From Bacillota bacterium (lineage in GTDB: Bacteria; Bacillota_I; Bacilli_A; Erysipelotrichales; Erysipelotrichaceae): a stretch of 47,148 nucleotides of DNA. The stretch covers positions 1-47,148 of the forward strand of contig JAQXNC010000130.1 of the NCBI GenBank assembly GCA_029097145.1, in the 5' to 3' direction. The notes below the pieces were generated by a model. It had not been told where the DNA came from, searched no databases, and worked only from the letters and a program-made list of their open reading frames with translations. A program made the position numbers and the translations under genes. Positions 1 to 45,224 of this stretch are shown piece after piece (the stretch's first letter is position 1; each line of letters opens with the position of its first letter).

Positions 1-604
1 AATACAATATTGAATAATCCATCTCGTTTTCTGCGTAAAACAATTCTTCAACTCTATTCAAGAACCCTTCTCTATTAAGCCCGCCTGTAATCGTATCGAC
101 ATAACTTAATTCATGAGTAGAAGTATTATCAAACATCATTCCAATGTCATCTTCTTTTTTGAATAGTATCCATTTAAATTCTTTATTCTTGGAAATGACT
201 TTAAGTTCAAACTCATCCTCTTTAAACTCAGTTTCAAACGAACTGTGAACGACAACATCATTGATTTTTATATCATCATATCCAAGATATTTAGCCAGCA
301 CCCTTTCACCTTCAACTGCGTCTTTTTCCATCTGCCAATATCCAATAAAGTTTGATGCAGTTTCAGACGACTCTTCTATAACGCCACATATCTCATTATC
401 GAAAGTCTTAACACGAATTTTTAAACAAACATTACCGGCATATATTTTAGTTTCATCACTAATTCCGGCTTTGATGTTTTTAAGAAAGATGGTATTATCA
501 TTCATCAATAAAAATCGTTCAAAGTCATTACTGCTGATTATTTTTCTGGTTGCATCGTCAATTAAAAAGCCATTGATGTATTTGAAGAACCCTATATTAT
601 TCAT
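1..604 (-). CDS. GGDEF-domain protein, C-terminal part outside the window
   Basis: The frame is open from an ATG at 604-602 to the window edge (about 201 codons). The first ~165 residues show no family I recognise. They are followed by YVDTITGGLNREGFLNRVEE, which matches the start of a GGDEF domain (usual form D-x-LTGL-x-NR-x-x-F). GGDEF domains make cyclic di-GMP or are degenerate sensors; the catalytic GGDEF loop lies beyond the edge, so activity cannot be judged. The ATG overlaps the stop of the upstream signal peptidase gene (AATGAATAA), so translation is probably coupled. It is the last visible gene of a four-gene overlapping operon. The TGGLNR form instead of TGLLNR hints at a divergent domain. 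Confidence 0.7.
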   Translation of the reverse strand, partial: MNNIGFFKYINGFLIDDATRKIISSNDFERFLLMNDNTIFLKNIKAGISDETKIYAGNVCLKIRVKTFDNEICGVIEESSETASNFIGYWQMEKDAVEGERVLAKYLGYDDIKINDVVVHSSFETEFKEDEFELKVISKNKEFKWILFKKEDDIGMMFDNTSTHELSYVDTITGGLNREGFLNRVEELFYAENEMDYSILY

Positions 605-1106
605 TTTCGTCCAACTCCTTCTTACATCTAATAGCATCCATAAGACTGCTGATTAACATAATCAGTAAAGGCACAGCAATACATCCGAAGAAAATAATCG
701 GATTAGACATTAATGTCATAACCTCACCAATGAAGTATGATTGGAAAATAACTTTACCGATAACATTATCTTTACTTACAGGATAAATATCATTAAAGTC
801 GTTAGCATCGCCTTTTGTAGTAATTCGGTCGCCATCAATACTGACAACACGATGAGTGTTTACCATTCCGCTAATTGAAGGGTCTGATGAAAAGAAGGAA
901 ATAATATCTCCTTCGGTAAATTCTTCTTCATGAACTACAATCAATGAATTTGTTTTAATGGCTGGTTCCATTGAGCCTGTTAGGACACGATATGTATGAT
1001 AACCATAATTAGCACTTCCGACAAAATTTAAAATTAACACCAATGTAGCAAGACCAATGAGGACTGCTGATACTATGTCTAATATTACTGAAATAACTTT
1101 TTTCAT
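597..1106 (-). CDS. SipW-like (S26B) signal peptidase I
   Basis: A 169-aa membrane protease with an N-terminal membrane segment (residues ~8-30) and a C-terminal one (~133-157). The nucleophile is Ser45 in GSMEPAI. The usual bacterial lysine is replaced by His85 in NTHRV, with an aspartate in the TKGDAND motif (~D100). This Ser-His-Asp arrangement is typical of SipW and of archaeal/ER signal peptidases, which in Bacillus release biofilm proteins such as TasA. The start overlaps the stop of the upstream coiled-coil gene by ATGA, and its own stop overlaps the GGDEF gene. No TasA-like or camelysin substrate is visible nearby, so the substrate is unknown. A second, divergent copy lies at 8613-9260. 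Confidence 0.85.
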   Translation of the reverse strand: MKKVISVILDIVSAVLIGLATLVLILNFVGSANYGYHTYRVLTGSMEPAIKTNSLIVVHEEEFTEGDIISFFSSDPSISGMVNTHRVVSIDGDRITTKGDANDFNDIYPVSKDNVIGKVIFQSYFIGEVMTLMSNPIIFFGCIAVPLLIMLISSLMDAIRCKKELDENE

Positions 1107-2671
1107 GAAGTGCTCCTTTTGAATAAACTGAAACGTTCCTGTTTTTTAATTTGTGAACGTAATTCTTCGTTTTCTTTGTTAAGTCGTTTAATCTCCTCTT
1201 GGTAGGAAATAATATTATTGCCCGCACTCTCCAGTTCGGATTTTATCTTGTCATATCCATCTAGTTTTGGCTGTACAACCTGTAATAGTTTTCCTATGGC
1301 ATTTAATTTAGTGGTACGGGTATTAAGCATATTAGCCAATTCAATATTTTTATTTGTAGTGTTTTCGAGTTTGCGTTTTACTCTAGCAAGTTCGTCAATA
1401 TAACCTGCATTTTCTTGTTCAAGCAAACTTATCTGGCCACTGTATTCAGATGATAACTTTTCTCTGATATTTTCAATTTCTCTGTTTGTTAAATCCATCT
1501 GTTGATCAAGTTGTCTTGTCAGATAATCAAGTTTAGTGCTGATGGTATTCTTTTCATCTGTTAATTCTTTGATGATTTCTTTTAATACTTCAATCTGCTT
1601 TTTGGCTTCAAGTTCACCTTCTGTTACTTCTTCAACAATGACCTGCCTGATTTCAACATTTGGTATATTATAGTCATCGACAACTTCATCCTGAATTGTC
1701 TTAACAAACTTCGGCTTAAAATTCTTATGCTTCTTTTGTTTAATCTTATCTAAATTTCTTCCATCTTTAGAAAGAATTGATTTAAATGTTGTATATGTAT
1801 TAATCAAGTTAGAATACATCTGCAATAAAAATTCTTGGTCAAAATCAACCAATGATTTCTTAATGTCGATACTGTATCCAACGTCATCATATCGCTCCAA
1901 AAACTGCCATAACTGATAACACTTTTTATAGTCAGGGTCTTTGATTAATAAGTTGGTTCTTTGAATCGGACTTCGTACCCTAGCACAACCATTCATCGTC
2001 GAATAAAATGTTGTATCTCTTAACGACAGAACCTGTTTCCTAACTTTATCAATACGCATAAACAAATCCATATTATCAGGCCCACTCTCGGCGAAGGTTT
2101 TATGGTTATTAACGATAATCTCGAGTTTGTATTCAACATCTTCCGTTTTCCCTTTTATCTTGGAATTCATATTAATTACATCTCTAATTTCATCGCCTTC
2201 AGTCCAGAAAATAATATCAGTACGCTGATCGATAAAAGAAATCAGTTTCTGTATTAAACAATAAACGAATCGATTTTCGTATAAATCGTAGGTTTCTTCA
2301 TTTGATACTGTTAGAATTCTTGTTGGTTGAATTTCTTCATCTGTTGCTGAGGCGATAAATTGAGTATTCTGCGATAAGTGTCTGATTGAATCGGCACTAA
2401 TTTTTTTAGCGTGTGAAGTTGGCACAACCTCCTCGACTGTTTTGATGAAACGCCTCGGTTTGTTGATTACTTTATTTAACGACTCTAATGAATCCTCGAT
2501 AGTTGTTAGCCACTTTTCATCGAGTTCTTTGTGCAGAGTCTGTTGTGAGTATTGAATTTCATTGTTTCCGCCTGATAACGTGTTGAATAAATATTGATAA
2601 AACTCATCTTCTTCTAATGAGCGTAATTTTCTTGATAATTTTCCGTATAAGCCTTCTATTGTTTTCGCCAT
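1103..2671 (-). CDS. DUF2357-like protein with long C-terminal coiled coil
   Basis: 522 aa. Residues ~100-310 resemble DUF2357, a domain found beside McrB-like ATPases in modification-dependent restriction and related systems; the ENRFVYCLI and LLIKDPDYKKCYQLW stretches are the features I used. Residues ~345-515 are a charged heptad-rich coiled coil. I see no PD-(D/E)XK nuclease motif, unlike McrC-type proteins, so it may be a structural or sensor subunit. The start codon lies inside the end of the acyltransferase gene, with GGGGGTAGG as ribosome binding site. The McrB-like AAA+ gene at 6984-8609 is a plausible partner although it sits in a separate transcript. The family call is from memory of motifs and is moderate. 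Confidence 0.55.
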   Translation of the reverse strand: MAKTIEGLYGKLSRKLRSLEEDEFYQYLFNTLSGGNNEIQYSQQTLHKELDEKWLTTIEDSLESLNKVINKPRRFIKTVEEVVPTSHAKKISADSIRHLSQNTQFIASATDEEIQPTRILTVSNEETYDLYENRFVYCLIQKLISFIDQRTDIIFWTEGDEIRDVINMNSKIKGKTEDVEYKLEIIVNNHKTFAESGPDNMDLFMRIDKVRKQVLSLRDTTFYSTMNGCARVRSPIQRTNLLIKDPDYKKCYQLWQFLERYDDVGYSIDIKKSLVDFDQEFLLQMYSNLINTYTTFKSILSKDGRNLDKIKQKKHKNFKPKFVKTIQDEVVDDYNIPNVEIRQVIVEEVTEGELEAKKQIEVLKEIIKELTDEKNTISTKLDYLTRQLDQQMDLTNREIENIREKLSSEYSGQISLLEQENAGYIDELARVKRKLENTTNKNIELANMLNTRTTKLNAIGKLLQVVQPKLDGYDKIKSELESAGNNIISYQEEIKRLNKENEELRSQIKKQERFSLFKRSTS

Positions 2672-3591
2672 AACCTACCCCCATTTATAAATGCAAACAT
2701 GAGTGTTGCTATTAAGATTGATACCAATAAATTAATGTACTTATTATTTATGTCCAGAAGTCTTGATAGATAACCAATCACTACCGGCTGATACAGATAG
2801 ATTTCTAAAGTACCGGTGAGTTTAGGAAATTTCTTAATAGTAAAAGCAAAATCAAATATTCCTAATGCACTAATCATTATTAGTAAGTTGTCGTAGCAAC
2901 TAATAAAACGAGTAAAGTTAGATGGACGCTGACCAAAATTATATGCAACACACGTCAGTAATATCGTTATAGCCAGCCAAACAAAAATACTATTTCGATG
3001 ACCTAATTTATCTCTTATTAAGTAAAGTTGATGTCCTAATAACAAATAAGCCATGTATCTAAATAGCGGATATAATAAATCAGCATACACACCAAAACCC
3101 AATAAGTATATTGCATTGATTCCAAATAACACTAGCAAAAAGTCAAGGGCATGTTTATTTCTTGCTAACACTTTAATCCATGGCATAAATAGATAAACAA
3201 ATATCATAAACTTAGATACATACCAAAGATGACCGCTGAATGGAGCATTGTTAATTTTTAATATTAGAATGTTCTTGATAATACTTGGTAGGGAAACTAC
3301 ATACTGATTGAATGATTTACAGTTTAATCCGTATGCAAATAAATATGCTACGACTGCCAATACATATAATTTAATTGCCTTTTTGATAAGTCCCTTATTT
3401 GACTCCTTATGTAGTTCAAGAAAACCAGTCAGCATAACAAAAATAGGAACACCAATCATACTTGCCATTGACAGCAAAATCATAAAAAGGTCGGAGTTCC
3501 CGCCCGAAAACATAAAAGATGAAGTACTGTGTAAAATAACGACCATTGCACAAGCAACCAGTCGTAAAAAGTCAATTCCTGAATATCTCAT
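2656..3591 (-). CDS. Acyltransferase 3 family membrane protein
   Basis: 311 aa with about ten hydrophobic segments. It begins MRYSGIDFLRLVACAMVVIL followed by HSTSSF: the DFLR...H pattern of the acyltransferase-3 family (OatA/NodX/WecH type), where the early histidine is part of the active site. These proteins transfer acetyl or other acyl groups to cell-wall or exported sugars. It is the first gene of an overlapping operon with the DUF2357, signal peptidase and GGDEF genes (16-nt overlap with the next gene). It diverges from the plus-strand DUF4234 gene, leaving about 110 bp for both promoters. Acceptor substrate unknown. The family is secure; its role in this cluster is inference. Confidence 0.8.
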   Translation of the reverse strand: MRYSGIDFLRLVACAMVVILHSTSSFMFSGGNSDLFMILLSMASMIGVPIFVMLTGFLELHKESNKGLIKKAIKLYVLAVVAYLFAYGLNCKSFNQYVVSLPSIIKNILILKINNAPFSGHLWYVSKFMIFVYLFMPWIKVLARNKHALDFLLVLFGINAIYLLGFGVYADLLYPLFRYMAYLLLGHQLYLIRDKLGHRNSIFVWLAITILLTCVAYNFGQRPSNFTRFISCYDNLLIMISALGIFDFAFTIKKFPKLTGTLEIYLYQPVVIGYLSRLLDINNKYINLLVSILIATLMFAFINGGRLWRKQ

Positions 3592-3701
3592 ATTAGATAA
3601 TACGCCGGCAATATGACAAACCTAATATTTTTGTTCGCTTTGAGCCTCTAAATGATAAATATGGCAATAGTTCGTATCATTTTGTAGAGAGGTACTAAAA
3701 G

Positions 3702-4037
3702 ATGAAAAAGAGAAATCCTGGTCTAGCATTACTCCTGTCTTTACTGACTTGTGGGTTATATGCAATATATTGGGAAATCGTTTTAGTCGATGATGTCAAC
3801 TTCGTTACAGAAAGGAGAACAACTTCAGGTGTAATGGTATTCCTACTAAGTATTTTAACTTGTGGAATTTACTGGTTATTCTGGGTTTATCAGGCTGGAG
3901 TAGCGATTGATGATGCAAGAGCAAAGGCTGGATTACCTGCAACAAACAAGGGTATCCTATGTCTCATACTAAGCATTTTCGGACTAGGCATTATCGCTAT
4001 GATGATTATTCAAAACGACGTAAATGAATTGGCATAA
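3702..4037 (+). CDS. DUF4234 membrane protein
   Basis: 111 aa with three hydrophobic segments. It carries two copies of a motif of the type LLSLLTCGLYAIYW / LLSILTCGIYWLFW, characteristic of the DUF4234 family of small membrane proteins of unknown function. The ribosome binding site is GAGAGG upstream of the ATG. The final 14 bases overlap the start of the DUF2752 gene, so the two are probably co-translated; the same pairing is common in Firmicutes. No enzymatic motif is visible. Confidence 0.75.
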   Translation: MKKRNPGLALLLSLLTCGLYAIYWEIVLVDDVNFVTERRTTSGVMVFLLSILTCGIYWLFWVYQAGVAIDDARAKAGLPATNKGILCLILSIFGLGIIAMMIIQNDVNELA

Positions 4038-4368
4038 ATCAAAAATGGGCAGGATTTGTTTAGCATTTCTTGCCCTCGTCTTATTGACACAAGCCATCCC
4101 TGTCCCATGTGCATTTAGAACTATCACTGGTATTAAGTGTCCTGGGTGTGGAATAACCAGATCCTTCCTCTCTTTAATGCGATTAGATTTTGTGAATGCT
4201 TTTTATTATAATGCTTTTGTGATAACACTAATTCCATTAACAATAATCTACCTCTTGATAAGAAAGAAACTTTCCGAAAGAACAGAAAACACAATCATCA
4301 TGGTAGTTATTATCCTGGCTTTTATGTTCATGGGAGTCAGAAATCTAAATATTTTGCCAATATATTAG
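4024..4368 (+). CDS. DUF2752 membrane protein
   Basis: 114 aa. An N-terminal hydrophobic segment is followed by CPGCGITRSFLSLMRLDFVN, the signature of DUF2752 (CPGCG-x-TR), and then two more membrane segments. The cysteine pair could bind a metal or form a disulphide, but no function is established. It starts inside the end of the DUF4234 gene, and an in-frame Met8 is an alternative start. A strong hairpin terminator follows at 4413-4440. Confidence 0.75.
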   Translation: MNWHKSKMGRICLAFLALVLLTQAIPVPCAFRTITGIKCPGCGITRSFLSLMRLDFVNAFYYNAFVITLIPLTIIYLLIRKKLSERTENTIIMVVIILAFMFMGVRNLNILPIY

Positions 4369-4412
4369 GACAATTACGGAATATTGTGGTTGTCCAAAAC
4401 CCTATAAATAAA

Positions 4413-4440
4413 GGATATTAGTTGATAATATCCTTTTTTA
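4413..4440 (+). terminator. Rho-independent terminator after the DUF4234-DUF2752 pair
   Basis: Perfect 8-bp stem GGATATTA / TAATATCC with loop GTTGA, followed by six T residues. Confidence 0.85.
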
Positions 4441-4523
4441 CTGCCTTATGAGACTGGATCCATGTCTAAATTTTTAGATAATTTCGTTTTGAGGCCATTT
4501 TAATACTAAAAGTTCATGTCATC

Positions 4524-4529
4524 TATAAT
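4524..4529 (+). promoter_or_regulatory. Candidate -10 box of the restriction-modification gene
   Basis: Perfect TATAAT 20 bases ahead of the start codon of the gene at 4549. The -35 region is weak, so start-site mapping would be needed. The ACGGGG ribosome binding site lies between. Confidence 0.45.
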
Positions 4530-4548
4530 CTAGCAACGGGGAATTTAT

Positions 4549-6699
4549 ATGGCAAAGAATTATTTAACCGAGCGAGAAGGACAAATTGCGTTTTTCAACA
4601 ATTTCAGAATTGATTATGAGAATAATCCTGTCCTAATAGACAACACCGATGGTGTCTGGAAAGGAAATATATTAGAGTTCAAATTAAATATAACGAATCT
4701 AAATAAAGTCGTTTTCCAGACAATCAAGTATCTTTCAAAAATGAGAATTAAGGGAGAGGCTGTTCCTGCTAATATTCTTATTGTTGATTTAAATCAAGAG
4801 ATTTGTTATGTGTATCATTCTCAAGATTACTTTGAGGATATTCATAAAGTTTATATAGGTGGTGCTTCTACAAATAACGAAAATTTCACCGCTGGTAACT
4901 ACAGAGAAAAAATTGATTACAGCACACAAGAAGGTTCATTAAGAGTTCTTCAGTTATTACAAGAAAATAACTACATGAAAATTAAAATTGATGAGAACTG
5001 TATTGTTGGATGGGCGGAAAGATATTATAAAGAGCATCCACATGCGAATAAAGGTGATTTTCTCGGTGATGAAACTGGAAAAATAAAAGTTAAAGGTGAA
5101 ATTAGAGAACCTAAATATTTCAAGGAATACATTCTACCATTTGAAGATACTACAAATGAAAGATTTAAGTATTTGATGGGTGTTTTAAATGATAGACTGA
5201 ATAAAAAAGAATTAGGTGCTTTCTATACACCAATGTTATATGCTGAAAAGGCTTGTGAATTAGTTAAGATGGCTATTGATAGAGTTCCGGAAGGTAATGA
5301 TTATATTATTCTTGATAGATGTTCTGGAACCGGAAATCTTGAACAGGCAATTATAAATAAATTAGGTGATGATGTTGCTTCACATATTATCTGCTCAACC
5401 TTTGAATATTATGAATATAAAGTTCTTCTTGAAAGAATTGGAGATAAAGTTAAAGCCATAATTCCGCCAACAGAAGAAAATGTAATATATAGCAATGGTT
5501 GTGTATTAAACGCTGATGCTTTAAGTAAAGACTATATTAATAATCCAATTATTAAAAGTTATGTAGATAACCCAGAGTGCTCAATTATTCTGTTTGAAAA
5601 TCCACCCTATCATGATGAAAGTTCAAACTCACAAGGAAACCAAGCCAGAACAAGAAACATTTCTTATGTAAAAGAAGAAATGAAAAAGGAGATAAAAGGA
5701 AACGCTTCAAATGATTTGGCGAATAGATTTATATGGTCAGCATTTAAATATTATTTAAGACAAGATACTGACAGTTATATATTATTCTCACCTCTCAAAT
5801 ACTGGAAATCTCAATCTTTGGTAAATAAGAAATTTGTTAAAGGATATTTATTCAACAGAAAACACTTTAATGCCACTGAATCAGGTGTAGGCTGTGTTTT
5901 CTGGAAGAATGAAGAAGATAAAACAAATGAGATTTCCTTAGAGGCATTCAACATCTGTGATGACGAACTAAAGTTAGATAAAAATATAACTGTTAAAAAA
6001 GTCTTTAATACACCTGCTAAATTGTTTGATAAAAGAAAAGAAGATAACTATATTGCCTATATGAACTGTTCTGGCTTTAATTTAAGCAACGACAGCAGAA
6101 GTTTATATAGAACAAACACGGTGAAAGGGCATGGAAGTTGTTTTTATGTATATCCAGATGTATATTTAGAAAAACTTCCTTTGTTTGTAGCAAAATTATA
6201 TCCTCAGGATAATTGGTTTGAAAAAGATGTTATTTATACCACAACTGATAAGGGTGATGCCTACAAAGAAGATGAAGATTTCTTAATGAAGTGCTTAATT
6301 TATGCTTGTCTCACAAATCAAAATAAATGTCTTTCATTCACGGATAATAATGGCAAGTATTACAATAATGAATTATGCTTTGATAAAGATACCCTTGCTT
6401 CAAAAGAATTAGAAAAGTATGAATTAAACGATGATGAGAATGAAGTTATAAATCTCTGGAATAGTATATTGACTGAAATAAAAACTCACCCTGAATATAA
6501 CGCCAATTTAAGATATGGAACATATCAGATAAATGAAGAAATAAATATATATACCGAAATAAATGATGGTAGAAGAAAAGAAAGAAGATATAAATATCCA
6601 GATTTAAACGGCAATTTAGACTCATTAGGAACTAAACTTAAAGACTATTATAAGAAATATATTGCTCCTAAAATGTTTGAATATGAATTGTTAAAGTAA
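4549..6699 (+). CDS. Single-chain restriction enzyme / N6-adenine DNA methyltransferase
   Basis: 716 aa. Residues ~25-50 contain D34...E43-F-K45, which fits a PD-(D/E)XK nuclease core. Residues ~220-460 are an amino-methyltransferase: AdoMet-binding motif I DRCSGTGN (256-263) and catalytic NPPY (351-354), preceded by the KKELGAFYTP stretch typical of type IIG/Eco57I-like enzymes. The C-terminal ~250 residues probably recognise DNA. One polypeptide would therefore cut and methylate. It stands alone on the plus strand between two minus-strand clusters, with its own -10 box and terminator, as expected of a mobile defence gene. The nuclease assignment is less sure than the methyltransferase; it could be an orphan methylase. 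Confidence 0.78.
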   Translation: MAKNYLTEREGQIAFFNNFRIDYENNPVLIDNTDGVWKGNILEFKLNITNLNKVVFQTIKYLSKMRIKGEAVPANILIVDLNQEICYVYHSQDYFEDIHKVYIGGASTNNENFTAGNYREKIDYSTQEGSLRVLQLLQENNYMKIKIDENCIVGWAERYYKEHPHANKGDFLGDETGKIKVKGEIREPKYFKEYILPFEDTTNERFKYLMGVLNDRLNKKELGAFYTPMLYAEKACELVKMAIDRVPEGNDYIILDRCSGTGNLEQAIINKLGDDVASHIICSTFEYYEYKVLLERIGDKVKAIIPPTEENVIYSNGCVLNADALSKDYINNPIIKSYVDNPECSIILFENPPYHDESSNSQGNQARTRNISYVKEEMKKEIKGNASNDLANRFIWSAFKYYLRQDTDSYILFSPLKYWKSQSLVNKKFVKGYLFNRKHFNATESGVGCVFWKNEEDKTNEISLEAFNICDDELKLDKNITVKKVFNTPAKLFDKRKEDNYIAYMNCSGFNLSNDSRSLYRTNTVKGHGSCFYVYPDVYLEKLPLFVAKLYPQDNWFEKDVIYTTTDKGDAYKEDEDFLMKCLIYACLTNQNKCLSFTDNNGKYYNNELCFDKDTLASKELEKYELNDDENEVINLWNSILTEIKTHPEYNANLRYGTYQINEEINIYTEINDGRRKERRYKYPDLNGNLDSLGTKLKDYYKKYIAPKMFEYELLK

Positions 6700-6703
6700 A
6701 GAA

Positions 6704-6735
6704 GACGAAACTAATTAAGGTTTCGCCTTTTTCTT
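6704..6735 (+). terminator. Terminator of the restriction-modification gene
   Basis: Stem GACGAAAC / GTTTCGCC (one mismatch) with an 8-base loop, followed by TTTTTC, starting five bases after the stop codon. Confidence 0.75.
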
Positions 6736-6814
6736 TCTTGTTGATCTTAAGTTGCCTCAATAAAATTATACCAATTTTTGAGGTTAAAACCAGCCTTATA
6801 ACACCAAAAATAAA

Positions 6815-6835
6815 GAGGTTATCTAAAATAACCCC
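6815..6835 (-). terminator. Possible minus-strand terminator hairpin
   Basis: GAGGTTAT / ATAACCCC with a 5-base loop; on the minus strand it is followed by TTTATTTTT. It could back up the terminator at the end of the AAA+ gene. Confidence 0.5.
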
Positions 6836-6887
6836 TTATAAATCATATTTTAAATGGACACATGAATCCGTAATAGTCCATATATTA

Positions 6888-6910
6888 GAGCGATGTTATC
6901 GCTCTTTTTT
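6888..6910 (+). terminator. Plus-strand hairpin terminator
   Basis: Perfect stem GAGCGAT / ATCGCTC with a GTT loop and six T residues. No plus-strand gene is visible between it and the terminator at 6704-6735, so it may end a short unidentified RNA or be a relic. Confidence 0.6.
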
Positions 6911-6914
6911 ATAT

Positions 6915-6950
6915 GACCAGATAAATGACCAGATAAATGTCCGGATAAAC
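6915..6950. repeat. Three tandem 12-bp units
   Basis: GACCAGATAAAT occurs twice in a row and is followed by a third, degenerate unit GTCCGGATAAAC. Confidence 0.7.
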
Positions 6951-6966
6951 GTTCTAAATATAAGAA

Positions 6967-6985
6967 AACTGGGATTTCCCCAGTT
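6967..6985 (-). terminator. Terminator overlapping the stop of the AAA+ gene
   Basis: AACTGGG / CCCAGTT hairpin. The minus-strand transcript continues TTCTTATATTT. The stop codon at 6986-6984 lies at the hairpin edge. Confidence 0.65.
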
Positions 6986-8609
6986 AAAATGTATTTTGAA
7001 TTCTTATTAAATAGTTTTTAGAATCAGTCATTCCTGTTTTGCCAAATAGTTTTTCAATATAAGAGATAAGACCTTTTATTTCATCTCGAACAAAACCGAT
7101 GTTCAATGACTCGAACTTCTTCAGTACTTTTCTTGATAAGATATAGTCAACAGCATCCAATTCTGAACCTCCTGTCGCAACATAAACAGGAATAAAATCG
7201 TTCAGTTGTTTAAAGATACGATTACCAATAGACAACTTAAATCTTGTCTGAAGATATCCATCTAACTTATATATTTTATCCATCATTTCATCTGATACCT
7301 TATACAATTCTTTTGCCTTATCAAACATTTCTACAAGATGAGCATTTGTAATAGAGATCTGCCCCTGATCTTGGGCTTCAAATGGTTCAGCCCTTTCGTT
7401 AAGTTCAATAGGCATTGCTCTATCATATACCTTATCTGTAATAGTAAATGTTGAATCATCATTATTTGCAGTACCAACAAAATACAGATTAGGTGTCATA
7501 CGAACCTTACCATCGGTCATCAGTTTTGGATCGTTTGTCCAAGCAGTTGGAACTAAATCCAGTACCCATTCGTCGAAACTTGGCATTTCGAGAATTGATA
7601 AAGGTTCAGCAAAATAATATTCAATACGAGCAAGGTTCATTTCATCAAGAACAATAAAGCATGGATCTTTACGATAGTTTGCTTCATATACTGCTCTTAA
7701 AAATTCTGTCTCATTAAAACGTTTTGAAAACTCGTTAAAGTATCCTAAAATTTCTGTTCTGTCTCTAAAGTTAGGTTGCACAGATACAATTGTTGCTGGA
7801 TTGTTCAGAAATCTTGATAAGGAATAAGGTAAACTTGTTTTACCTGTACCAGAAATACCTTCAAGAATCATAATATGTGATGAAGCCATACCAGCTACAA
7901 AACGTCTGATAGTTTCGATACTATAATACAGTTTCATACGATTGCCAGCAAACTGGCGGAACTTTTCACAAAACTGTTCAAGCGTAATTTCATTATCCCA
8001 TTCTGGCTCAACGTATTCAGCGTATCGTTCATCAACGTTATATAGTTTAGGAAATCTTATGACGGAATCTTTTTCCCTCTGATCTGCAAGCATTTTAGCA
8101 TTAACAGTTGCAGTTGCCATTGACTCGGCTGATTTCTCATCAAAATTTAAACCACTTGCAACGATATTGCCGTTAACAGTACCACCGATAGTATCGGTTG
8201 CTAAGGCACTTTCGCCAATATAGTTATTTGCTCCGGTAGCCTTAACCTGCAACGCAAGAATTCTATTTTTCTCATCTATTAAGTCTAATACCTGCTTATT
8301 CAATTTACCAATTTCTTTATAAAGTTCTGCATTATCTTCAGTAGTAGCACGCAACTTAATATTTAGTATAATGCGTCTTACTATGATAACGACAATCAGG
8401 ATTGGAATAGCAATTAAAACAATTGCCAGCAAGATTGCAAGTATCTTGGAGAACAAATTAAGTTCAGGAAAATACGACATAAATATTGATGAGTATGCTC
8501 CAAAAAAGAGTAGACTGAAAAGCCCGTTGAAAAAGTTAACTATCCAATCGGTTAAGTTGTAGATAATTTGGGATATGAGTTCAAACGCAAGGTTTAGAAA
8601 TTCACTCAT
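6984..8609 (-). CDS. Membrane-anchored McrB-like AAA+ ATPase
   Basis: 541 aa. Residues ~8-80 hold two or three hydrophobic segments; ~90-125 look like a short coiled coil. An AAA_5/McrB-type ATPase follows: Walker A GISGTGKTS (251-259), Walker B FIVLDEMNLARIEYYF (LDEMN at ~321-325) and a sensor region GTANNDDSTFTITDKVYDRA. McrB proteins are GTP-dependent DNA translocases of modification-dependent restriction, but they are soluble; the N-terminal membrane anchor is unusual and suggests action at the envelope. It starts three bases after the stop of a SipW-like signal peptidase. The nuclease partner (McrC) is absent; the DUF2357 protein at 1103-2671 is a candidate partner. ATP versus GTP use is unknown. 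Confidence 0.75.
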   Translation of the reverse strand: MSEFLNLAFELISQIIYNLTDWIVNFFNGLFSLLFFGAYSSIFMSYFPELNLFSKILAILLAIVLIAIPILIVVIIVRRIILNIKLRATTEDNAELYKEIGKLNKQVLDLIDEKNRILALQVKATGANNYIGESALATDTIGGTVNGNIVASGLNFDEKSAESMATATVNAKMLADQREKDSVIRFPKLYNVDERYAEYVEPEWDNEITLEQFCEKFRQFAGNRMKLYYSIETIRRFVAGMASSHIMILEGISGTGKTSLPYSLSRFLNNPATIVSVQPNFRDRTEILGYFNEFSKRFNETEFLRAVYEANYRKDPCFIVLDEMNLARIEYYFAEPLSILEMPSFDEWVLDLVPTAWTNDPKLMTDGKVRMTPNLYFVGTANNDDSTFTITDKVYDRAMPIELNERAEPFEAQDQGQISITNAHLVEMFDKAKELYKVSDEMMDKIYKLDGYLQTRFKLSIGNRIFKQLNDFIPVYVATGGSELDAVDYILSRKVLKKFESLNIGFVRDEIKGLISYIEKLFGKTGMTDSKNYLIRIQNTF

Positions 8610-8612
8610 ACT

Positions 8613-9260
8613 TTATTCCCTCTTTTGTGCCTCTTCTCGAATCTTCTTTGCTTCTTCTAAAATTCTGTTTGCTTCTTCAAGTTTAGCATTCGCTTCGTTT
8701 GTCTGACCTTCTTCTTTTTCAGCGTTCTTGAGTTCAAGAATAGTCATGATCAATCTGTATACCTGATAGATGAAGAATATTAATAACGGAATAATAATTA
8801 CCAGTAAGAAACCAATTGAACTAGATAAGAACTTCATCAGTAATCCAAGACCAGCGATTTTTAGAACATACTTACCTACAATATCGCCACTGCTGACAAT
8901 CTTCTTATCTTCTACTGGGTTATTATCACCTTTTGTGTTGAAAACCTTTAATCCATTCTCATCTGTAATTTTAGTAATTCTATGTGTATTTAAAGAATAC
9001 TGATTTTCTATTAGAGCGTGGAATGTAATGATGTCGCCCTCTTTTAAAGTTTCAGGATCACATTCTTTAATAATGATCAGATCGCTGGTTGTAAAAGTTG
9101 GACTCATTGATTCGGATGATACAGTTAGAGGTGTATATCCAAAAATGTTTGATACCGAATTAGTATCTTTAGTGGCAAGCGTTGTAAACACAAATAATGC
9201 TGACATAAATATGATTATCCATAATACAACACTTAAAACGGTTGACAGAACTTTCTTCAT
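8613..9260 (-). CDS. SipW-like signal peptidase I, second copy
   Basis: 215 aa starting at the ATG preceded by AAAGGAGATTTTT; an in-frame GTG 21 bases upstream lacks such a site. Catalytic pattern: Ser51 in SSESMSPTF, His93 in NTHRI and Asp112 in TKGDNNP, the Ser-His-Asp arrangement of SipW and archaeal enzymes. It has membrane segments at ~7-28 and ~135-165, and a C-terminal charged helix rich in EEA repeats (~180-215) that the copy at 597-1106 lacks. It is followed directly by the membrane AAA+ gene. Substrate unknown. The two copies differ in sequence, so each may serve its own operon partner. Confidence 0.85.
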   Translation of the reverse strand: MKKVLSTVLSVVLWIIIFMSALFVFTTLATKDTNSVSNIFGYTPLTVSSESMSPTFTTSDLIIIKECDPETLKEGDIITFHALIENQYSLNTHRITKITDENGLKVFNTKGDNNPVEDKKIVSSGDIVGKYVLKIAGLGLLMKFLSSSIGFLLVIIIPLLIFFIYQVYRLIMTILELKNAEKEEGQTNEANAKLEEANRILEEAKKIREEAQKRE

Positions 9261-9331
9261 AAAAATCTCCTTTATAATCACGAAATTTTACATACAAATT
9301 AGCGTTTATATTATTTTTATCTTGCCTAAAG

Positions 9332-9358
9332 CAAAAATAAAACAACCTTACAAGGTTG
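9332..9358 (-). terminator. Terminator behind the 48-aa ORF
   Basis: CAACCTT / AAGGTTG stem with a 2-base loop, followed on the minus strand by TTTTATTTTT. It separates the small ORF from the signal peptidase gene. Confidence 0.75.
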
Positions 9359-9369
9359 CTATGCCAGTC

Positions 9370-9516
9370 TTACCTGACATCGATTTTGCAAATCTTCAGT
9401 TTCCTGTACCCAAGCCCCCAATAGCTATCAAAAGCCTTAAGAGCATATTCTTTTTTGGGGAAAGTACCAAGATACTCCAACTGTCCCAGAAAACTGGTAC
9501 CGAATAGTTCGTACAT
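9370..9516 (-). CDS. Small 48-aa protein
   Basis: The ORF starts at an ATG with the strong ribosome binding site GGAGGAAATATAG and encodes 48 residues beginning MYELFGTSFLGQLEYLGTF, rich in aromatic and basic residues (GLGYRKLKICKIDVR at the end). There is no membrane segment and no recognised family. Its own terminator at 9332-9358 supports a real gene. It resembles the short conserved proteins that repeat a domain seen in larger accessory proteins, but this is a guess. It lies upstream of the signal-peptidase/AAA+ operon. Confidence 0.6.
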   Translation of the reverse strand: MYELFGTSFLGQLEYLGTFPKKEYALKAFDSYWGLGYRKLKICKIDVR

Positions 9517-9646: not shown

Positions 9647-9680
9647 TAAAAAAACAAAAAGCAGATTATATTCTGCTTTT
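9647..9680 (-). terminator. Terminator of the 118-aa gene
   Basis: AAAGCAGA / TCTGCTTT hairpin overlapping the stop codon, followed on the minus strand by TTGTTTTTTT. Confidence 0.85.
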
Positions 9681-10022
9681 ATAGTATGCCTCTTCATCTT
9701 CTACAAGAACCGGGTGTCCTAATGCATAAATCCATTCTGCTTCCGCCACTTTGAGTTCATCATAGTATGATGGATCGGTTATGGCTTTTGCTCTTGCATC
9801 AGACATTCTCTTTGCGATTTCACTGAAGCGACTTTCATCAATATGACCGATTTTGCCATCTAATAAAACATAAACCCAATCATTTTCGAAATAGTAGTCA
9901 GGATTATCGACCATTATTTCAATGCTAGGTTCATTACCTTCTAAGATATCTTCGAAAGCGTAACACTCGAATTCTAGTATTAGATTTTTGTTAACAATTT
10001 CTCTAACTCTATATGTTTTCAT
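9666..10022 (-). CDS. Hypothetical protein, 118 aa
   Basis: An acidic soluble protein starting MKTYRVREIVNKNLILEFEC. The N-terminal half looks like a small beta-rich domain (a KIGHIDESRF turn near residue 60), and the C-terminal half is helical. I recognise no family. The ribosome binding site AAGGACTG precedes the ATG, and a strong terminator overlaps the stop. It lies 58 bases downstream of the metallo-beta-lactamase gene and is probably co-transcribed with it. The PDYYFENDWVYVLLDGKIGH region recalls HIRAN or short SH3-like folds, but I cannot confirm that. Confidence 0.65.
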   Translation of the reverse strand: MKTYRVREIVNKNLILEFECYAFEDILEGNEPSIEIMVDNPDYYFENDWVYVLLDGKIGHIDESRFSEIAKRMSDARAKAITDPSYYDELKVAEAEWIYALGHPVLVEDEEAYYKSRI

Positions 10023-10080
10023 TCTTACAGTCCTTTCTCTTCTTCATAGTAATTATACGCTCCGAATCATCATTGTTTCC

Positions 10081-11664
10081 TTATTTGAATTCACATGTTG
10101 ATTGCTGATAAAAATCATCAATTCTGTCATTATACTCATCGAGCAGAGCTTCGCCATAGGCTGCATTTTCATATTTTTTAGGATTGTTAATTAAGAAGTC
10201 CTTGTTGAATATCTTGTTTTTTATGTTTATTCCTAGCGTCAGAGTTTTTAGCACAACATCTTCACACAGATTATTCAATTCGTTGAAATCATTTGGAAGA
10301 AGATTTGCAATCAGCCTGCGGTTTCGTAAATCCCCTTCTCTTCTTTTTTGTGATACAATTTCTTCTTTTAGATCTCTCTTGGACTGTTCTTGTATTTTTT
10401 TAGTTCTCACATACACTTCATCATCTTTCACCGTTAAGTGAATGTCATCTAAAAAGTAAGTTGATAATACTCTAAAATTGCATCGAGATTTCACATTTGA
10501 GTCATCTCCATGTTCTCTGCCGATCGAACTGATACCAATGCGAACATTTTTAGCATGCGATAAAGCATAGTGCCCTGTAGCACTGTCTAGTCCGTGATGA
10601 GCCATAATCTGAACCACTGCTTCTTCCATCATATTTTTAAAATCTAATGCTTTCCCTTTCTTGAAGATTTGCTCCATAGCATTTTCTAGCACGGTTTCCG
10701 AGTCTCCGGGGAAAAAGAATTTAGTATTTTTAACCTTCAGGCACATTAAAATGGAATTATTATTGGTAGTGTCTATTTTATTAAGTTTTTTATCACCCTT
10801 GTTGTATAATTCGGGGTTAACTCTTAATATCTCAATAACTACATCATCCGATATGCGAATTGTTTTTCGAATGTATTCTTTAGGTTTGTCTATAAAAGTT
10901 ACTCTTGTTGAAATCAATTCCCTAGGCAAACCTTTTATATTTCTTTTTGAGTACTCTCTTCTTAAATCTCTTTCGAAGTCCAACATCTGAGCTTCTTTGA
11001 ACAATCGTTTATCTTTATCAGCTGAATCGACCGTTGGATTCACATACTCATTAATAACCAAGCTCTTAACATCTAAACTGTCTGTTCTGCTGAAAATATC
11101 AAGTTGAGCCTCTCGATAAAGTTCAAAACCGTTACCCGACTTATTGAAACGGTCAACTGTTTCCCTAACGAATGCCTGACCTTCTTTACTAAGCTTCCCA
11201 AAACGACTATCAAAACTCTTATTTCTATCATGTAAACCGTTAGCCGTTTCTAAATATCTGTATAAACATTCATTAATGACTTTCACTTCGTCTACACTAA
11301 AATTTATAGGGTTCTCTATCTTTAATTCTGGGTATTTTTTGAGAATCATTTTAGTCATGACTTCGTTTAACCCTTTTTGAATTGCATAATTGTTTGGAGG
11401 TGTTGGTAAGACAAGTTCTTTAATATGAATATCACAGTCAACACAATAGCTGATCGCTGAAAACAAATTGCCATAATGATCCTTATCCCAATGTGATAAG
11501 AAAAACGAAACACTCTTTGGTTTTGCTTTTTCAATAGTGTTTTTTATTCCCTTCCAGCTATAATTTGTCGCCGTGTCAACGAAGACTAAATTTTTTCCAT
11601 CATATATTGATATGGATAAAGCGTCAGCAACATCAATAACGTTTACATCAACCATGTTACTCAT
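10081..11664 (-). CDS. ComEC-like metallo-beta-lactamase fold protein
   Basis: 527 aa. The metal-binding motif HWDKDH (58-63, form HxDxDH) is typical of the ComEC/Rec2 branch of metallo-beta-lactamases. Further ligands are in FFFPGDSE and IMAHHGLDSATGHYALSHAK, the ComEC-like HHG...S block. Unlike ComEC it has no membrane segments, and it carries a helical insertion of ~190 residues between the first and later motifs. Related stand-alone proteins are predicted nucleases or phosphodiesterases in conflict systems. The start has an AGAGG site, and a TATAAT box lies at 11682-11687. It sits downstream of the RNA kinase/phosphatase/ligase, separated by a terminator. Nucleic-acid processing is likely but not shown. 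Confidence 0.75.
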   Translation of the reverse strand: MSNMVDVNVIDVADALSISIYDGKNLVFVDTATNYSWKGIKNTIEKAKPKSVSFFLSHWDKDHYGNLFSAISYCVDCDIHIKELVLPTPPNNYAIQKGLNEVMTKMILKKYPELKIENPINFSVDEVKVINECLYRYLETANGLHDRNKSFDSRFGKLSKEGQAFVRETVDRFNKSGNGFELYREAQLDIFSRTDSLDVKSLVINEYVNPTVDSADKDKRLFKEAQMLDFERDLRREYSKRNIKGLPRELISTRVTFIDKPKEYIRKTIRISDDVVIEILRVNPELYNKGDKKLNKIDTTNNNSILMCLKVKNTKFFFPGDSETVLENAMEQIFKKGKALDFKNMMEEAVVQIMAHHGLDSATGHYALSHAKNVRIGISSIGREHGDDSNVKSRCNFRVLSTYFLDDIHLTVKDDEVYVRTKKIQEQSKRDLKEEIVSQKRREGDLRNRRLIANLLPNDFNELNNLCEDVVLKTLTLGINIKNKIFNKDFLINNPKKYENAAYGEALLDEYNDRIDDFYQQSTCEFK

Positions 11665-11843: not shown

Positions 11844-13931
11844 TTATCGTACTTTCTCGTCTTCGTTGATTTTCTTATACACATCTATAATATTTGTTAG
11901 TTCGTCTTTATGTTGAAGCATCCAATCAGTTTCGTAAGATACTTCTCGAGGCTGCTTACCATCTTTGATGCGTTCCATATCTTTACGCAATTCTTTTAAG
12001 TGCAGATAATAGTCAAATTTCATCTTGCACATAAAGTTTCCTGACTCAATGACAATCCCTTCTAGGTTATCAATATACTTAGTACCACGAGTTTTTGTTT
12101 CATCGTACCACTTTCTAAATTCATCGAAGTTCTTCCATCTTGCGTATTCTTGTTTGACCTCGGCGTGAATTTGATCGGATAGTTTCTGAAGGTCTTGGTA
12201 AGGAAGTCTTTCAAATTCCAGTTGATTTTTTATTACATCAAGTAAGACAATTTTTGAATGGTCGTATTCGATGATATGAGGATCGCGTTCCTGATCAATA
12301 ACTTCAAAGACAGCCGAACAATTATTGTCTTTTAGATATTGCTTTAATTTATCGGCGTCAATTCCACTCTTATAGAACAGGTCTTTAAAATATCCTGCAA
12401 AGTCGCTCTTATCAGTTGATTTAGAACAGAACTTTAATTGATCGTCAACACAAGACATAATTCCTAAAAAACCGTTTTCCTTTTTATAGGCTATGATTTC
12501 GCCAGTTAATCCTTGATTAAGGTTTTCTATTCTTGTTTCTGGTGTTTCATTAATGTTCATAAACTTATCATATGATCTTAATACTACTCGACTGTTTTCT
12601 GGTGTGATATTAGATGGATCACTTGTCGCTACAAATAAACCTCTTGCCTTAGTAGTTAAATCATTCCACTCTTTATGCTGGAATGCATCTCTTGTAAAAT
12701 TGCACGAGCACAGTGTTGAACCATCCTTTAATTTGCCGAGATTTTTGATCTCAACTAGATCGCTTTTAAAGAAGTCTTTGATTTTGACCTGTGATTCATT
12801 TTGAATTTTTATCACATCTAAATCTCGTAAAACAGATAAGCATCCGCCTTTTTCAACACCACTTTCAAGATTGACAGCGTTTTTATATACACATCTATTA
12901 AACAGATTACGATGGCCGTGAATTTGAACTATGCTTTTCTCATTAACTGACCATTCTTCATCTACATCATATTCATATCTACCGATACCTTTAATAAGTT
13001 GAATAGTAGGAACCATAATCAGATTATCAGGCATTTTGTCAAGCCCACCGTGATTAACAAAATAGGTTGTACCGTCTTTTTCATACATGACACACTGTCT
13101 TAGATTTCTACAGAATAGTCTCAGATCTTTTTTAGAGAAATCTTTAATATCCTGCATTGTGTGAAGTTTAAATTCTTTTGATTTAATCTGATCTATCTCA
13201 TCGTTAGCATAATGTCTTAGCCATTTTTCATGATTACCTTCGATAAATATGAAGTTTGGTTTTTTATAATGGCTTAGTAAGAAATCCATTATCTCTTTAT
13301 TCTCTCTGCCTCGATCGAGATAATCACCACAGAAGATATACATTTCATTTTCAGACTCAGGATACTTATCGAAAAATTCCTTTAATGGAGTATAGCATCC
13401 ATGAATATCACCAAAGACATTAACGTGTTCGTAGTTATTAAAATCTTCGGTACGCCACTTAATTTTGTCATTAAATTCACTGCTGTCAATCATATTTTTA
13501 ATTTGACTATCAGTTGATTTAATACGGTTATACATCTTATCAATTGTTTTGTCAGGAACTCTGTTAAGTTCAGGTCTTAAAGCATTTCTTCTTTTTGCTT
13601 CTTCAAGCGAAATGTCAAAATTAACAACAGTAGTTCTATATCCGTATTTACTTGTTAATTTGTCGTATTGCTTTATATCTTCAATTTTGGCATGAGTTGC
13701 ATCAACGATAACAAATTCTCCGCCTTCCATTCTATTTTCCAAAAATTGATATAACGTTTTCCATACTAAGTCAGTAGACTGTTGCGTAATTCCAGATTGC
13801 CCCATGTGAGGTCCATTCGCTAATAATCTAAATTCATCAGCGTTTAACGTATATCTTTCTAAATTATTTTCCTTTATAAAAGTCGATTTGCCAGATGCTG
13901 GCACACCTCTTAGTAATACAAGTTGTTTCAT
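11844..13931 (-). CDS. RNA end-healing and sealing enzyme: kinase-phosphatase-RNA ligase
   Basis: 695 aa from the ATG with site GGAGGTG; 19 further codons upstream lack one. Domain 1 (1-160) is a polynucleotide-kinase P-loop: GVPASGKST (9-17). Domain 2 (170-380) is a calcineurin-like phosphatase: FGDIHG (173), GDYLDRG (202), GNHEKW (232), NHGG (293), HGH (338). Domain 3 (390-695) is an Rnl1-type RNA ligase: ARGLF (429), nucleophile motif KENG (Lys484), FEVI (542), EGIVIE (624), KMKFD (636). It would convert 2',3'-cyclic phosphate and 5'-OH ends, as left by tRNA anticodon nucleases, to 3'-OH and 5'-phosphate, then join them. This is comparable in logic to T4 Pnkp+Rnl1 or bacterial Pnkp. All catalytic motifs are intact. 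It follows the DUF2828 gene and RNA-like elements. Confidence 0.88.
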   Translation of the reverse strand: MKQLVLLRGVPASGKSTFIKENNLERYTLNADEFRLLANGPHMGQSGITQQSTDLVWKTLYQFLENRMEGGEFVIVDATHAKIEDIKQYDKLTSKYGYRTTVVNFDISLEEAKRRNALRPELNRVPDKTIDKMYNRIKSTDSQIKNMIDSSEFNDKIKWRTEDFNNYEHVNVFGDIHGCYTPLKEFFDKYPESENEMYIFCGDYLDRGRENKEIMDFLLSHYKKPNFIFIEGNHEKWLRHYANDEIDQIKSKEFKLHTMQDIKDFSKKDLRLFCRNLRQCVMYEKDGTTYFVNHGGLDKMPDNLIMVPTIQLIKGIGRYEYDVDEEWSVNEKSIVQIHGHRNLFNRCVYKNAVNLESGVEKGGCLSVLRDLDVIKIQNESQVKIKDFFKSDLVEIKNLGKLKDGSTLCSCNFTRDAFQHKEWNDLTTKARGLFVATSDPSNITPENSRVVLRSYDKFMNINETPETRIENLNQGLTGEIIAYKKENGFLGIMSCVDDQLKFCSKSTDKSDFAGYFKDLFYKSGIDADKLKQYLKDNNCSAVFEVIDQERDPHIIEYDHSKIVLLDVIKNQLEFERLPYQDLQKLSDQIHAEVKQEYARWKNFDEFRKWYDETKTRGTKYIDNLEGIVIESGNFMCKMKFDYYLHLKELRKDMERIKDGKQPREVSYETDWMLQHKDELTNIIDVYKKINEDEKVR

Positions 13932-14025
13932 ATAAACACCTCCACAGAGATAATACATATAACCATTCCATATATAGCCGACCGACAAATGTTCCGGTCA
14001 AAGCTGAGAAAGAATTTTATGAGAA

Positions 14026-14496: not shown

Positions 14497-15822
14497 TTAT
14501 ACTATCTTCTGTTGATATTCGTCAAGCAACTTATTTAGGAATTGCTTGCCATCAAAACCTGCTTCAAGATATTTTAATAACATAGGACTGTATCCCGACA
14601 AGAAGATATTACCATAGTCATCAGTTTCAGGAGACGTAGCATTTCTAACATCAAAGTTCCACCATACAATTTTGGTAGTATATCCTTTTTGTTTCCAGAG
14701 CTTCATTAATTTATCTTTACTATCAGAAGAACCATTATTGAACTCCATATCGCTTAATACGACTAGATATTCAGGAACTTCTTTTAGATCTTTGAATAAA
14801 TCCATGACAGCACCTAAATTAGTATCTGTGCAATCACCTGTGTATAAAGATTCGATCTCTTCACAGTAATTGTTCCCTTTTATCTTCATTAAGTGAGGGC
14901 GAGAAGAGAACGGTACTACATATCCGTTACAGAAAGTAGAGCATTTAGCTAGATAGTGTCCGATACTCAATGCTTTACCTACTGCATCTGTGTCGCCCCA
15001 ATACATAGAACCAGATGTATCTACTATTGGTATACAAGAAATAGAAATCTTTTCTATCTTATCGAAGAATAAATCAGCATCGATCTTCTCTCGATTTCTA
15101 TAAATGTCATAAACTGTAGAAGTAGCAACGTTTAATTTGTTTTTACCACTTTTAACACCTTCAATATACTCTTCAAATCTTTCTTTAGTATCTTCACGAG
15201 TTTTGAAAGCATCATAATACTTCATCATTGCTAGTGAAGGAACGTGTTCGAAATCAATAGTGTCAACAAGTGGATGACTAAAACCACCCTTGCTAAATAC
15301 TTCTTCTAAAGGGTTCTGAGATGTTACCTCAGAATAAGACAGTTTGTATTCAACAGTATCTGGAGTCTTAATAAAAGCACGATATTCTTTTTCTGTCATG
15401 TCCCAGTGCTTAGCAAGCAGCTTTGCTTCCTTGGCATTCTTACCAGTTAATCTTGGTGCCCATTTCTTTGCTAATGCATTTCCTGCTTCAATTTCATGTT
15501 TCCAGAAATCTAAGGCTTCATCACTTGCGATTGCTAATAAATCATCATATCTACCAGCCTTAACAACATTCTCAGGGCTAACCTTTGATTGATACATAAG
15601 TTCACGTCCAAGATCACGTCTACCTAATCCAAGTCGAGGGTCTCTGATAAACATACTAAAAAGTTTTTCTTTATCTGAATTCCCAATTTTAACTTCAGAC
15701 ATGTTTTTCTCTAAATAACTTGTCATGAACAAAATGTCAAGCAAATCATCTCCGGTAGATGAATAGGCTTCATCACCATTTTCAGTAAGTTTCTTTAATT
15801 TTTCTTTCTCTAATAAATTCAT
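14497..15822 (-). CDS. DUF2828 / TROVE-related protein with von Willebrand A domain
   Basis: 441 aa from the ATG with site GGAGG (an upstream GTG reading is less likely because the site would lie inside the gene). Residues ~20-250 are helical, with GLGRRDLGRELMY, GRYDDLLAI and LAKKWAPRLTG, which match the DUF2828 family, a relative of the TROVE/Ro60 RNA-binding ring. Residues ~262-430 are a vWA domain with an intact MIDAS: DTSGSM (Asp268), a later TDTNLG and VVLSDMEF. Ro60/Rsr proteins bind misfolded RNAs and Y RNAs. The gene sits between candidate structured RNAs and the RNA ligase gene, which fits RNA surveillance and repair. A TATAAT lies about 100 bases upstream. RNA binding is inferred from the family. 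Confidence 0.8.
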   Translation of the reverse strand: MNLLEKEKLKKLTENGDEAYSSTGDDLLDILFMTSYLEKNMSEVKIGNSDKEKLFSMFIRDPRLGLGRRDLGRELMYQSKVSPENVVKAGRYDDLLAIASDEALDFWKHEIEAGNALAKKWAPRLTGKNAKEAKLLAKHWDMTEKEYRAFIKTPDTVEYKLSYSEVTSQNPLEEVFSKGGFSHPLVDTIDFEHVPSLAMMKYYDAFKTREDTKERFEEYIEGVKSGKNKLNVATSTVYDIYRNREKIDADLFFDKIEKISISCIPIVDTSGSMYWGDTDAVGKALSIGHYLAKCSTFCNGYVVPFSSRPHLMKIKGNNYCEEIESLYTGDCTDTNLGAVMDLFKDLKEVPEYLVVLSDMEFNNGSSDSKDKLMKLWKQKGYTTKIVWWNFDVRNATSPETDDYGNIFLSGYSPMLLKYLEAGFDGKQFLNKLLDEYQQKIV

Positions 15823-15921
15823 TTTTAACCTCCAAAACACCTGTATGGCTTTTTCAATAAAAGTGAAAGATATATATGCTGTAAGTGTTTTTCTATTAGA
15901 TATTATTAATACGTTAACATT

Positions 15922-45223: not shown

Positions 45224-45224
45224 A

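What the first reader, a model, noticed from the sequence alone, without database searches (positions are those of the whole stretch)
597..9516. Two SipW-like signal peptidases paired with a membrane McrB-like ATPase and a DUF2357 coiled-coil protein
Seen: two Ser-His-Asp signal peptidases, each in a tight operon, one with a membrane-anchored AAA+ ATPase of the McrB type, the other with an acyltransferase, a DUF2357-like coiled-coil protein and a GGDEF protein, all overlapping. Known: McrB and DUF2357 proteins occur together in restriction-type systems; SipW-type peptidases mature specific exported proteins. Inference: a membrane-located assembly that couples an McrB-like motor to envelope processing, possibly phage defence or cyclic di-GMP-linked surface control. 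No nuclease domain was found.
Basis: partly seen in the sequence, partly recalled or inferred. Interest (0 to 1): 0.72.

Follow-up and report, generated by a model that had tools for sequence, protein, structure and literature searches.

The report
McrBC-like motor linked to surface fibres
This bacterium carries a membrane-anchored relative of a DNA-cutting defence machine that has lost its cutter and sits with two dedicated signal peptidases; in dozens of relatives the same set is embedded among TasA-like surface-fibre genes and cyclic-di-GMP genes, so it most likely helps build or control surface fibres rather than cut foreign DNA.

Summary
Two SipW/ER-type signal peptidases flank a membrane-anchored McrB-like NTPase (NxD motif) and a DUF2357 (McrC-like) coiled-coil protein with no nuclease. 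The layout matches CoCoPALM, named but not analysed in 2024 (Bell et al., PMC11090510). In 80 related loci the order pilins-SipW1-TM-McrB-McrC-SipW2 is strongly conserved: SipW1 70/76, McrC 69/71, SipW2 55/57, SipW-type pilins 37/41, c-di-GMP genes 31/41. Eleven control McrB loci have none of this and no TM segment. The pilins (an orthologous set lies on another contig of this genome) fold like TasA and other donor-strand fibre subunits. I conclude that a McrBC-derived membrane NTPase works in maturation, assembly or gating of SipW-dependent surface fibres, often under c-di-GMP control. Phage defence has little support; the acyltransferase is a local addition. What the motor does is inferred, not shown. 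The locus is a new member of a known but uncharacterised kind; the functional assignment is the interesting part.

The parts
8613..9281 (-). SipW1: SipW/ER-type signal peptidase (Ser-His-Asp), 222 aa, with a cytosolic E/K/A-rich helical C-tail
   Evidence: TIGR02228 114 bits (cutoff 51.85), NF046067 SipW 118 bits (below its 190 cutoff); SipW directly upstream of McrB in 70/76 loci; charged tails over 25 aa in 73/74 SipW1
6984..8609 (-). TM-McrB: membrane-anchored McrB-like AAA+ NTPase, NxD motif GTANNDDS, 541 aa
   Evidence: AAA_5; PDB matches McrB only; TM in 79/79 clade members vs 0/11 controls; TM clade 100/99 in tree
1103..2671 (-). McrC-like DUF2357 protein with C-terminal coiled coils, no nuclease, 522 aa; the only DUF2357 gene found in this genome
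   Evidence: PF09823 E=1.6e-12; AF2 model matches McrC: 6ut5_G Z 8.6, 6hz4_M Z 8.3 over residues 47-263; genome search
597..1106 (-). SipW2: second SipW/ER-type signal peptidase, 169 aa
   Evidence: TIGR02228 80 bits; SipW2 downstream of McrC in 55/57 loci
2..637 (-). N-terminal 212 aa of a gene cut by the contig edge; possible start of a GGDEF domain at its end
   Evidence: open reading frame; no Pfam hit; EAL/GGDEF/PilZ genes occupy this place in many relatives
2656..3591 (-). Acyltransferase (PF01757), 311 aa, overlapping McrC; local addition, not conserved
   Evidence: no homologue in any related locus
3702..4037 (+). DUF4234 membrane protein, part of the inserted block
   Evidence: PF14018 E=1.9e-20; absent from other loci
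4024..4368 (+). DUF2752 membrane protein, part of the inserted block
   Evidence: PF10825 E=5.7e-20; absent from other loci
4549..6699 (+). 716-aa methyltransferase-like protein (motifs DRCSGTGN and ENPPY), inserted between McrB and McrC
   Evidence: motifs read from sequence; no Pfam, NCBIfam or PADLOC family

Best explanation
This is a CoCoPALM-type locus: a McrBC-derived, nuclease-free NTPase pair anchored in the membrane and dedicated to SipW-dependent surface fibres. Shown or strongly supported by comparison: (1) TM-McrB, McrC and two SipW peptidases form a conserved operon; (2) relatives flank them with tandem arrays of exported proteins bearing SipW-type N-termini, one of which was modelled and has a TasA/donor-strand fold; (3) c-di-GMP enzymes and PilZ receptors are frequent neighbours; (4) this genome has an orthologous four-pilin array on contig C52. 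Inferred: SipW1/SipW2 release fibre subunits from their N-terminal anchors. TM-McrB forms a hexamer on the inner face of the membrane, is stimulated by the DUF2357 protein as in McrBC, and is linked by coiled coils to SipW1 and McrC. NTP hydrolysis then gates or orders subunit delivery, cleavage or release, with c-di-GMP as the on/off signal.
For: Conserved order in 80 loci: SipW1 70/76, McrC 69/71, SipW2 55/57, pilins 37/41 full loci, c-di-GMP proteins 31/41. The SipW-type N-terminal motif occurs on 144 of 1025 ORFs on the operon strand at these loci vs 3 of 817 on the other strand and 0 of 168 control ORFs; one G188 pilin exceeds the TIGR04088 cutoff. TM in 79/79 clade McrBs vs 0/11 control NxD McrBs, which lack SipW and pilins. 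Pilin model pLDDT 88.6; best structural matches TasA fibre 8aur Z 6.8, TasA 5of1 Z 6.2, archaeal thread 7pnb Z 5.9, then fimbrial subunits. Own-genome pilin array on C52, orthologous in order. McrC model matches McrC but ends in coiled coils; several relatives stop right after DUF2357. Published precedent: TasA and BsaA fibres need SipW (PMC9674648, PMC7395162). TM-McrB loci without SipW (L122, L123) sit beside large adhesin-like exported proteins with YDG, MBG or BspA-LRR domains.
Against: No experiment. The McrBC role in fibre biogenesis is guilt by association: published descriptions of the B. subtilis TasA and C. perfringens BsaA operons include no McrBC. In this genome McrB and McrC are separated and the pilins lie on another contig, so the unit may be partly broken here. 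Pilin fold Z values (under 7) are moderate. Two sampled TM-McrB loci show no McrC (L119, L120) and three show no SipW (L122, L123, L125). The system is rare in the window's own order and absent from eight congeners, as is also expected of accessory defence genes.
Confidence: 0.7

Rival explanations
1. A membrane-tethered type IV restriction-like or abortive anti-phage system, in which TM-McrB/McrC senses invasion and the peptidases or surface proteins are effectors or entry blockers.
For: McrBC ancestry; nearest non-TM relatives are CoCoNuT-like operons with TerY-P-type genes on plasmids; PADLOC candidate PDC-M26A matches the ATPase domain; sporadic distribution in the order; in this genome methyltransferase and MBL genes lie beside it.
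Against: No nuclease or toxin domain in the conserved core; recurrent neighbours are fibre subunits and c-di-GMP genes; McrC lacks PD-(D/E)xK; the defence-like genes here are not conserved with it; 79 of 392 genomes in the phylum sample carry close homologues, often several copies.
Confidence: 0.12
2. McrB/McrC does not act on fibres directly but is an NTPase signalling or chaperone module that controls SipW activity or subunit folding at the inner membrane face, with c-di-GMP as input.
For: McrC stimulates McrB hydrolysis in characterised systems (PMC11090510); helical charged tails on SipW1 and coiled coils on McrC; EAL/GGDEF/PilZ neighbours.
Against: No interaction data; genomics alone cannot separate it from a direct assembly role.
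Confidence: 0.3
3. In this genome the operon is a decaying remnant: pilins, McrB and McrC have been scattered by insertions and mobile elements and no longer work as a unit.
For: 3.4-kb opposite-strand block between McrB and McrC; pilins on C52, followed by other genes; transposases near the right end of the contig; acyltransferase not found elsewhere.
Against: All core frames are intact, with conserved motifs; McrB is 70% identical to that of G188; one intact copy of each in the genome. No test of selection was run.
Confidence: 0.15

Closest known systems
[quoted passage not shown] 2024, PMC11090510
   Same: NxD McrB-like GTPase fused to a TM/coiled-coil segment, McrC homologue with coiled coil, associated signal peptidases
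   Different: Here the pair is split by an inserted block, with an acyltransferase added; the passages of the paper that I read do not describe TasA-like substrates or c-di-GMP genes
CoCoNuT type IV systems (PMC11090510)
   Same: NxD GTPase and DUF2357 protein; nearest homologues outside the TM clade (37-41% identity)
   Different: No TM anchor, no SipW or pilins; CoCoNuTs carry RNase/nuclease genes and, on the plasmids read here, VWA, phosphatase and kinase genes
E. coli / T. gammatolerans McrBC
   Same: AAA+ domain and McrC N-terminal fold
   Different: No PD-(D/E)xK nuclease, no nucleic-acid recognition domain, a membrane anchor, NxD instead of NxxD
TapA-SipW-TasA (B. subtilis) and SipW-BsaA (C. 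perfringens) fibre operons
   Same: Dedicated SipW peptidase and fibre subunits; TasA fold
   Different: Those operons have one SipW and no McrBC-like NTPase

Membership tests
CoCoPALM | NxD variant of the McrB signature motif | tested here: met
   GTANNDDS in window; N(N/K)DD in the clade loci
CoCoPALM | McrB domain fused to an N-terminal transmembrane segment | tested here: met
   hydropathy 3.68 at residue 59; 79/79 clade members, 0/11 controls
CoCoPALM | FtsB-like homology / coiled coil after the TM in McrB | tested here: inconclusive
   a charged helical-looking stretch follows the TM, but no FtsB profile or coiled-coil program was run
CoCoPALM | Associated signal peptidase genes | tested here: met
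   two in the window; SipW1 70/76, SipW2 55/57 loci
CoCoPALM | McrC homologue (DUF2357) with coiled coil | tested here: met
   PF09823 E=1.6e-12; helices 339-520; McrC Z 8.6
CoCoPALM | Placement inside the published CoCoPALM GTPase clade | tested here: inconclusive
McrBC type IV restriction | PD-(D/E)xK endonuclease domain in McrC | tested here: not met
   no Pfam match, none in the model; relatives end after DUF2357
McrBC type IV restriction | N-terminal nucleic-acid recognition domain on McrB | tested here: not met
   N-terminus is a membrane segment and linker; no such Pfam domain
SipW-dependent TasA-like fibre system | SipW/ER-type signal peptidase with Ser-His-Asp | tested here: met
   TIGR02228 above cutoff for both
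SipW-dependent TasA-like fibre system | TasA-fold fibre subunits with SipW-type signal peptide in the same genome | tested here: met
   C52 four-gene array orthologous to the L030 pilins; the L030 orthologue folds like TasA, Z 6.8
SipW-dependent TasA-like fibre system | Polymerised extracellular fibres | not testable with these tools
   needs microscopy and biochemistry

The most novel reading that the evidence does not exclude
A whole branch of the McrBC family has been turned from nucleic-acid restriction into a membrane NTPase machine that drives or gates assembly of donor-strand (TasA-like) surface fibres, with c-di-GMP input: an energy-using assembly machine for a fibre class so far described with only a SipW peptidase and a nucleating accessory protein.
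Probability: 0.5. Interest if true: 0.85.

Novelty: new member of a known kind. Interest (0 to 1): 0.62.

Why it matters
CoCoPALM has a name but no assigned function. The conserved link to TasA-like fibre subunits, paired SipW peptidases and c-di-GMP genes gives a concrete, testable role and argues that McrBC-type motors are not always defence systems. About 20% of sampled genomes in the phylum (79 of 392) carry close homologues, so this may be a common, overlooked surface-fibre pathway of gut and rumen bacteria, and such loci should not be counted as restriction systems in defence surveys.

Tried and rejected
GGDEF in the window: not supported by Pfam; none of the GGDEF matches in G000 was identified as the missing half of the cut gene. 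Acyltransferase, DUF4234, DUF2752, methyltransferase and 118-aa gene as system parts: no homologues at related loci. The first genome scan with the window protein alone found nothing; an alignment query solved it. A search of the own genome for the TM beta protein of G188 found nothing, which shows little. PDB sequence search for the pilins: no match. Foldseek alone gave weak pilin matches topped by unrelated beta folds; the VIA second look put TasA on top. An early script used E-values as scores and mislabelled cross-hitting families (the c-di-GMP count there of 0/41 is that error); corrected; the SipW, McrB and McrC counts were unaffected. The Mrr_cat nuclease family was not found in the genome.

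Full report
What is in the window. All core genes read on the minus strand. SipW1 (8613-9281) is followed after 3 bp by an McrB-like AAA+ ATPase (6984-8609). Then, after a 3.4-kb stretch with three plus-strand genes (3702-6699), come an acyltransferase (2656-3591), a DUF2357 protein (1103-2671), SipW2 (597-1106) and an ORF cut by the contig end (2-637), overlapping by 16, 4 and 41 bp. Pfam supports AAA_5, DUF2357, Acyl_transf_3 and Peptidase_S26. Both peptidases exceed the cutoff of TIGR02228, the archaeal/ER-type signal peptidase I model, and match the SipW model below its cutoff. The cut ORF has no Pfam hit, so 'GGDEF' is a reading of about 30 residues at the contig edge.

McrB and McrC identity. 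The only PDB sequences matching the ATPase alignment are E. coli McrB. The window protein has a strong hydrophobic N-terminal segment and the motif GTANNDDS, that is NxD. The AF2 model of the DUF2357 protein (pLDDT 79.5) has a core (1-301) that aligns with McrC of T. gammatolerans (Z 8.6) and E. coli (Z 8.3) and ends in two long helices; no nuclease domain is present. Several relatives stop right after the DUF2357 core. It is the only DUF2357 gene found in this genome.

Neighbourhood survey. A genome-contig scan with a four-sequence alignment gave 80 loci. Counting only loci with enough flank: SipW within 300 bp upstream of McrB 70/76; McrC within 400 bp downstream 69/71 (in the other two it lies about 0.7 and 1.0 kb away); SipW2 after McrC 55/57; proteins with the SipW-type N-terminal motif in 37 of 41 full loci, up to six per locus; EAL, GGDEF, PilZ or HD-GYP proteins in 31/41 (domain identities). 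For scale, this genome has nine GGDEF matches in 1.65 Mb. Eleven control loci with other NxD McrBs (seven from the same order, four CoCoNuT-like plasmid loci) have no TM, no SipW and no pilin. The TM type is one side of a branch with 100/99 support. The 80 loci were chosen by similarity, so they are not a random sample of the class.

The substrates. The nearest relative with a complete operon (G188; L016 and L030 are the same contig) has four pilin genes, SipW1, TM-McrB, McrC, SipW2, an EAL protein, a PilZ protein, a TM beta protein and two more pilins. A search of the window's own genome led to contig C52 with orthologues of the four pilins in the same order. In C52 they are followed by an MBL-fold gene and a small gene; SipW1 in the window is preceded by a weakly similar MBL-fold gene and a small gene, so the operon appears rearranged in this genome. 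The AF2 model of the fourth pilin from L030 (pLDDT 88.6) ranks the TasA fibre 8aur first (Z 6.8), then TasA crystals, the archaeal thread filament, and FimA and other fimbrial subunits. Published work shows that TasA polymerises by donor-strand exchange and is cleaved by SipW (PMC9674648), and that BsaA fibres of C. perfringens need SipW (PMC7395162).

Breadth. In 392 genomes spread over the window's phylum, 79 carry a close homologue, often more than one. Ten of these loci were read: seven have SipW and/or SipW-type exported proteins; the three without SipW (L122, L123, L125) still carry a TM. L122 and L123 sit beside very large exported proteins with YDG, MBG, LRR or transglutaminase-like domains and carry two or three McrB copies; L119 and L120 show no McrC. 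The common theme is the cell surface, not nucleases.

Comparison with what is known. Bell et al. 2024 describe in one paragraph a clade of NxD GTPases fused to an FtsB-like TM/coiled-coil segment, associated with signal peptidases and coiled-coil McrC homologues, and call them CoCoPALM, deferring analysis to a later paper. The library search found no other paper on them apart from its preprint. The defining features that I could test are met; the published clade itself could not be compared.

Mechanism. Shown: gene content, conservation, predicted folds. From established knowledge: McrC-type proteins stimulate McrB-type hexamers; SipW cleaves TasA-like subunits. Inferred: the hexamer sits on the cytoplasmic membrane face, coupled by coiled coils to SipW1 and McrC, and uses NTP to gate or order subunit release; c-di-GMP switches the system. 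The last two steps have no direct evidence. Defence is the main functional rival and is disfavoured by the lack of effectors and by the neighbours.

What the window adds and lacks. The acyltransferase, the DUF4234/DUF2752/methyltransferase block and the MBL gene are not found at the related loci and are best seen as local insertions. Whether the split operon still works here cannot be told from sequence.

Noticed in passing
window 3702-6699: Three plus-strand genes (DUF4234, DUF2752, 716-aa protein with methyltransferase motifs DRCSGTGN and ENPPY but no family hit) lie between McrB and McrC; the last may be a type IIG-like modification gene.
   Followed up: partly
window 9666-11664; L029 2595-4508: An MBL-fold protein (weak PADLOC LmuA match) plus a small gene lies upstream of SipW1, and a weakly similar MBL-fold/small-gene pair follows the pilin array on contig C52.
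   Followed up: partly
window 11844-13988: Polynucleotide kinase-phosphatase-like protein (TIGR04075 77 bits, far below its cutoff of 750), resembling part of bacterial Pnkp RNA repair enzymes.
   Followed up: no
window 14497-15840: Protein with DUF7788 and DUF2828 domains, near the Pnkp-like gene.
   Followed up: no
window 43764-46869: Two transposase-like genes (one with HTH_38, one DDE_Tnp_ISL3) near the right contig end, a possible cause of assembly breaks and rearrangement.
   Followed up: no
L122 5627-11659; L123 8086-12334: TM-McrB relatives in two or three copies around one McrC, beside very large exported adhesin-like proteins and without SipW: a probable sister system.
   Followed up: partly
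L119 7720-18314; L120 9840-19901: TM-McrB loci with no recognisable McrC, followed by small SipW-type exported proteins and a 2100-2300-aa exported protein with no Pfam family.
   Followed up: partly
L124 7962-17240; L128 8214-17236: SipW plus TM-McrB linked to an ABC-2-type transporter and an 816-837-aa exported protein of unknown family.
   Followed up: no
L023-L026 (plasmids): Closest non-TM relatives of the NTPase are CoCoNuT-like operons with VWA, PP2C phosphatase, Ser/Thr kinase and further AAA-domain genes on plasmids of Deinococcus, Pseudanabaena, Rhodoferax and Nostoc.
   Followed up: no
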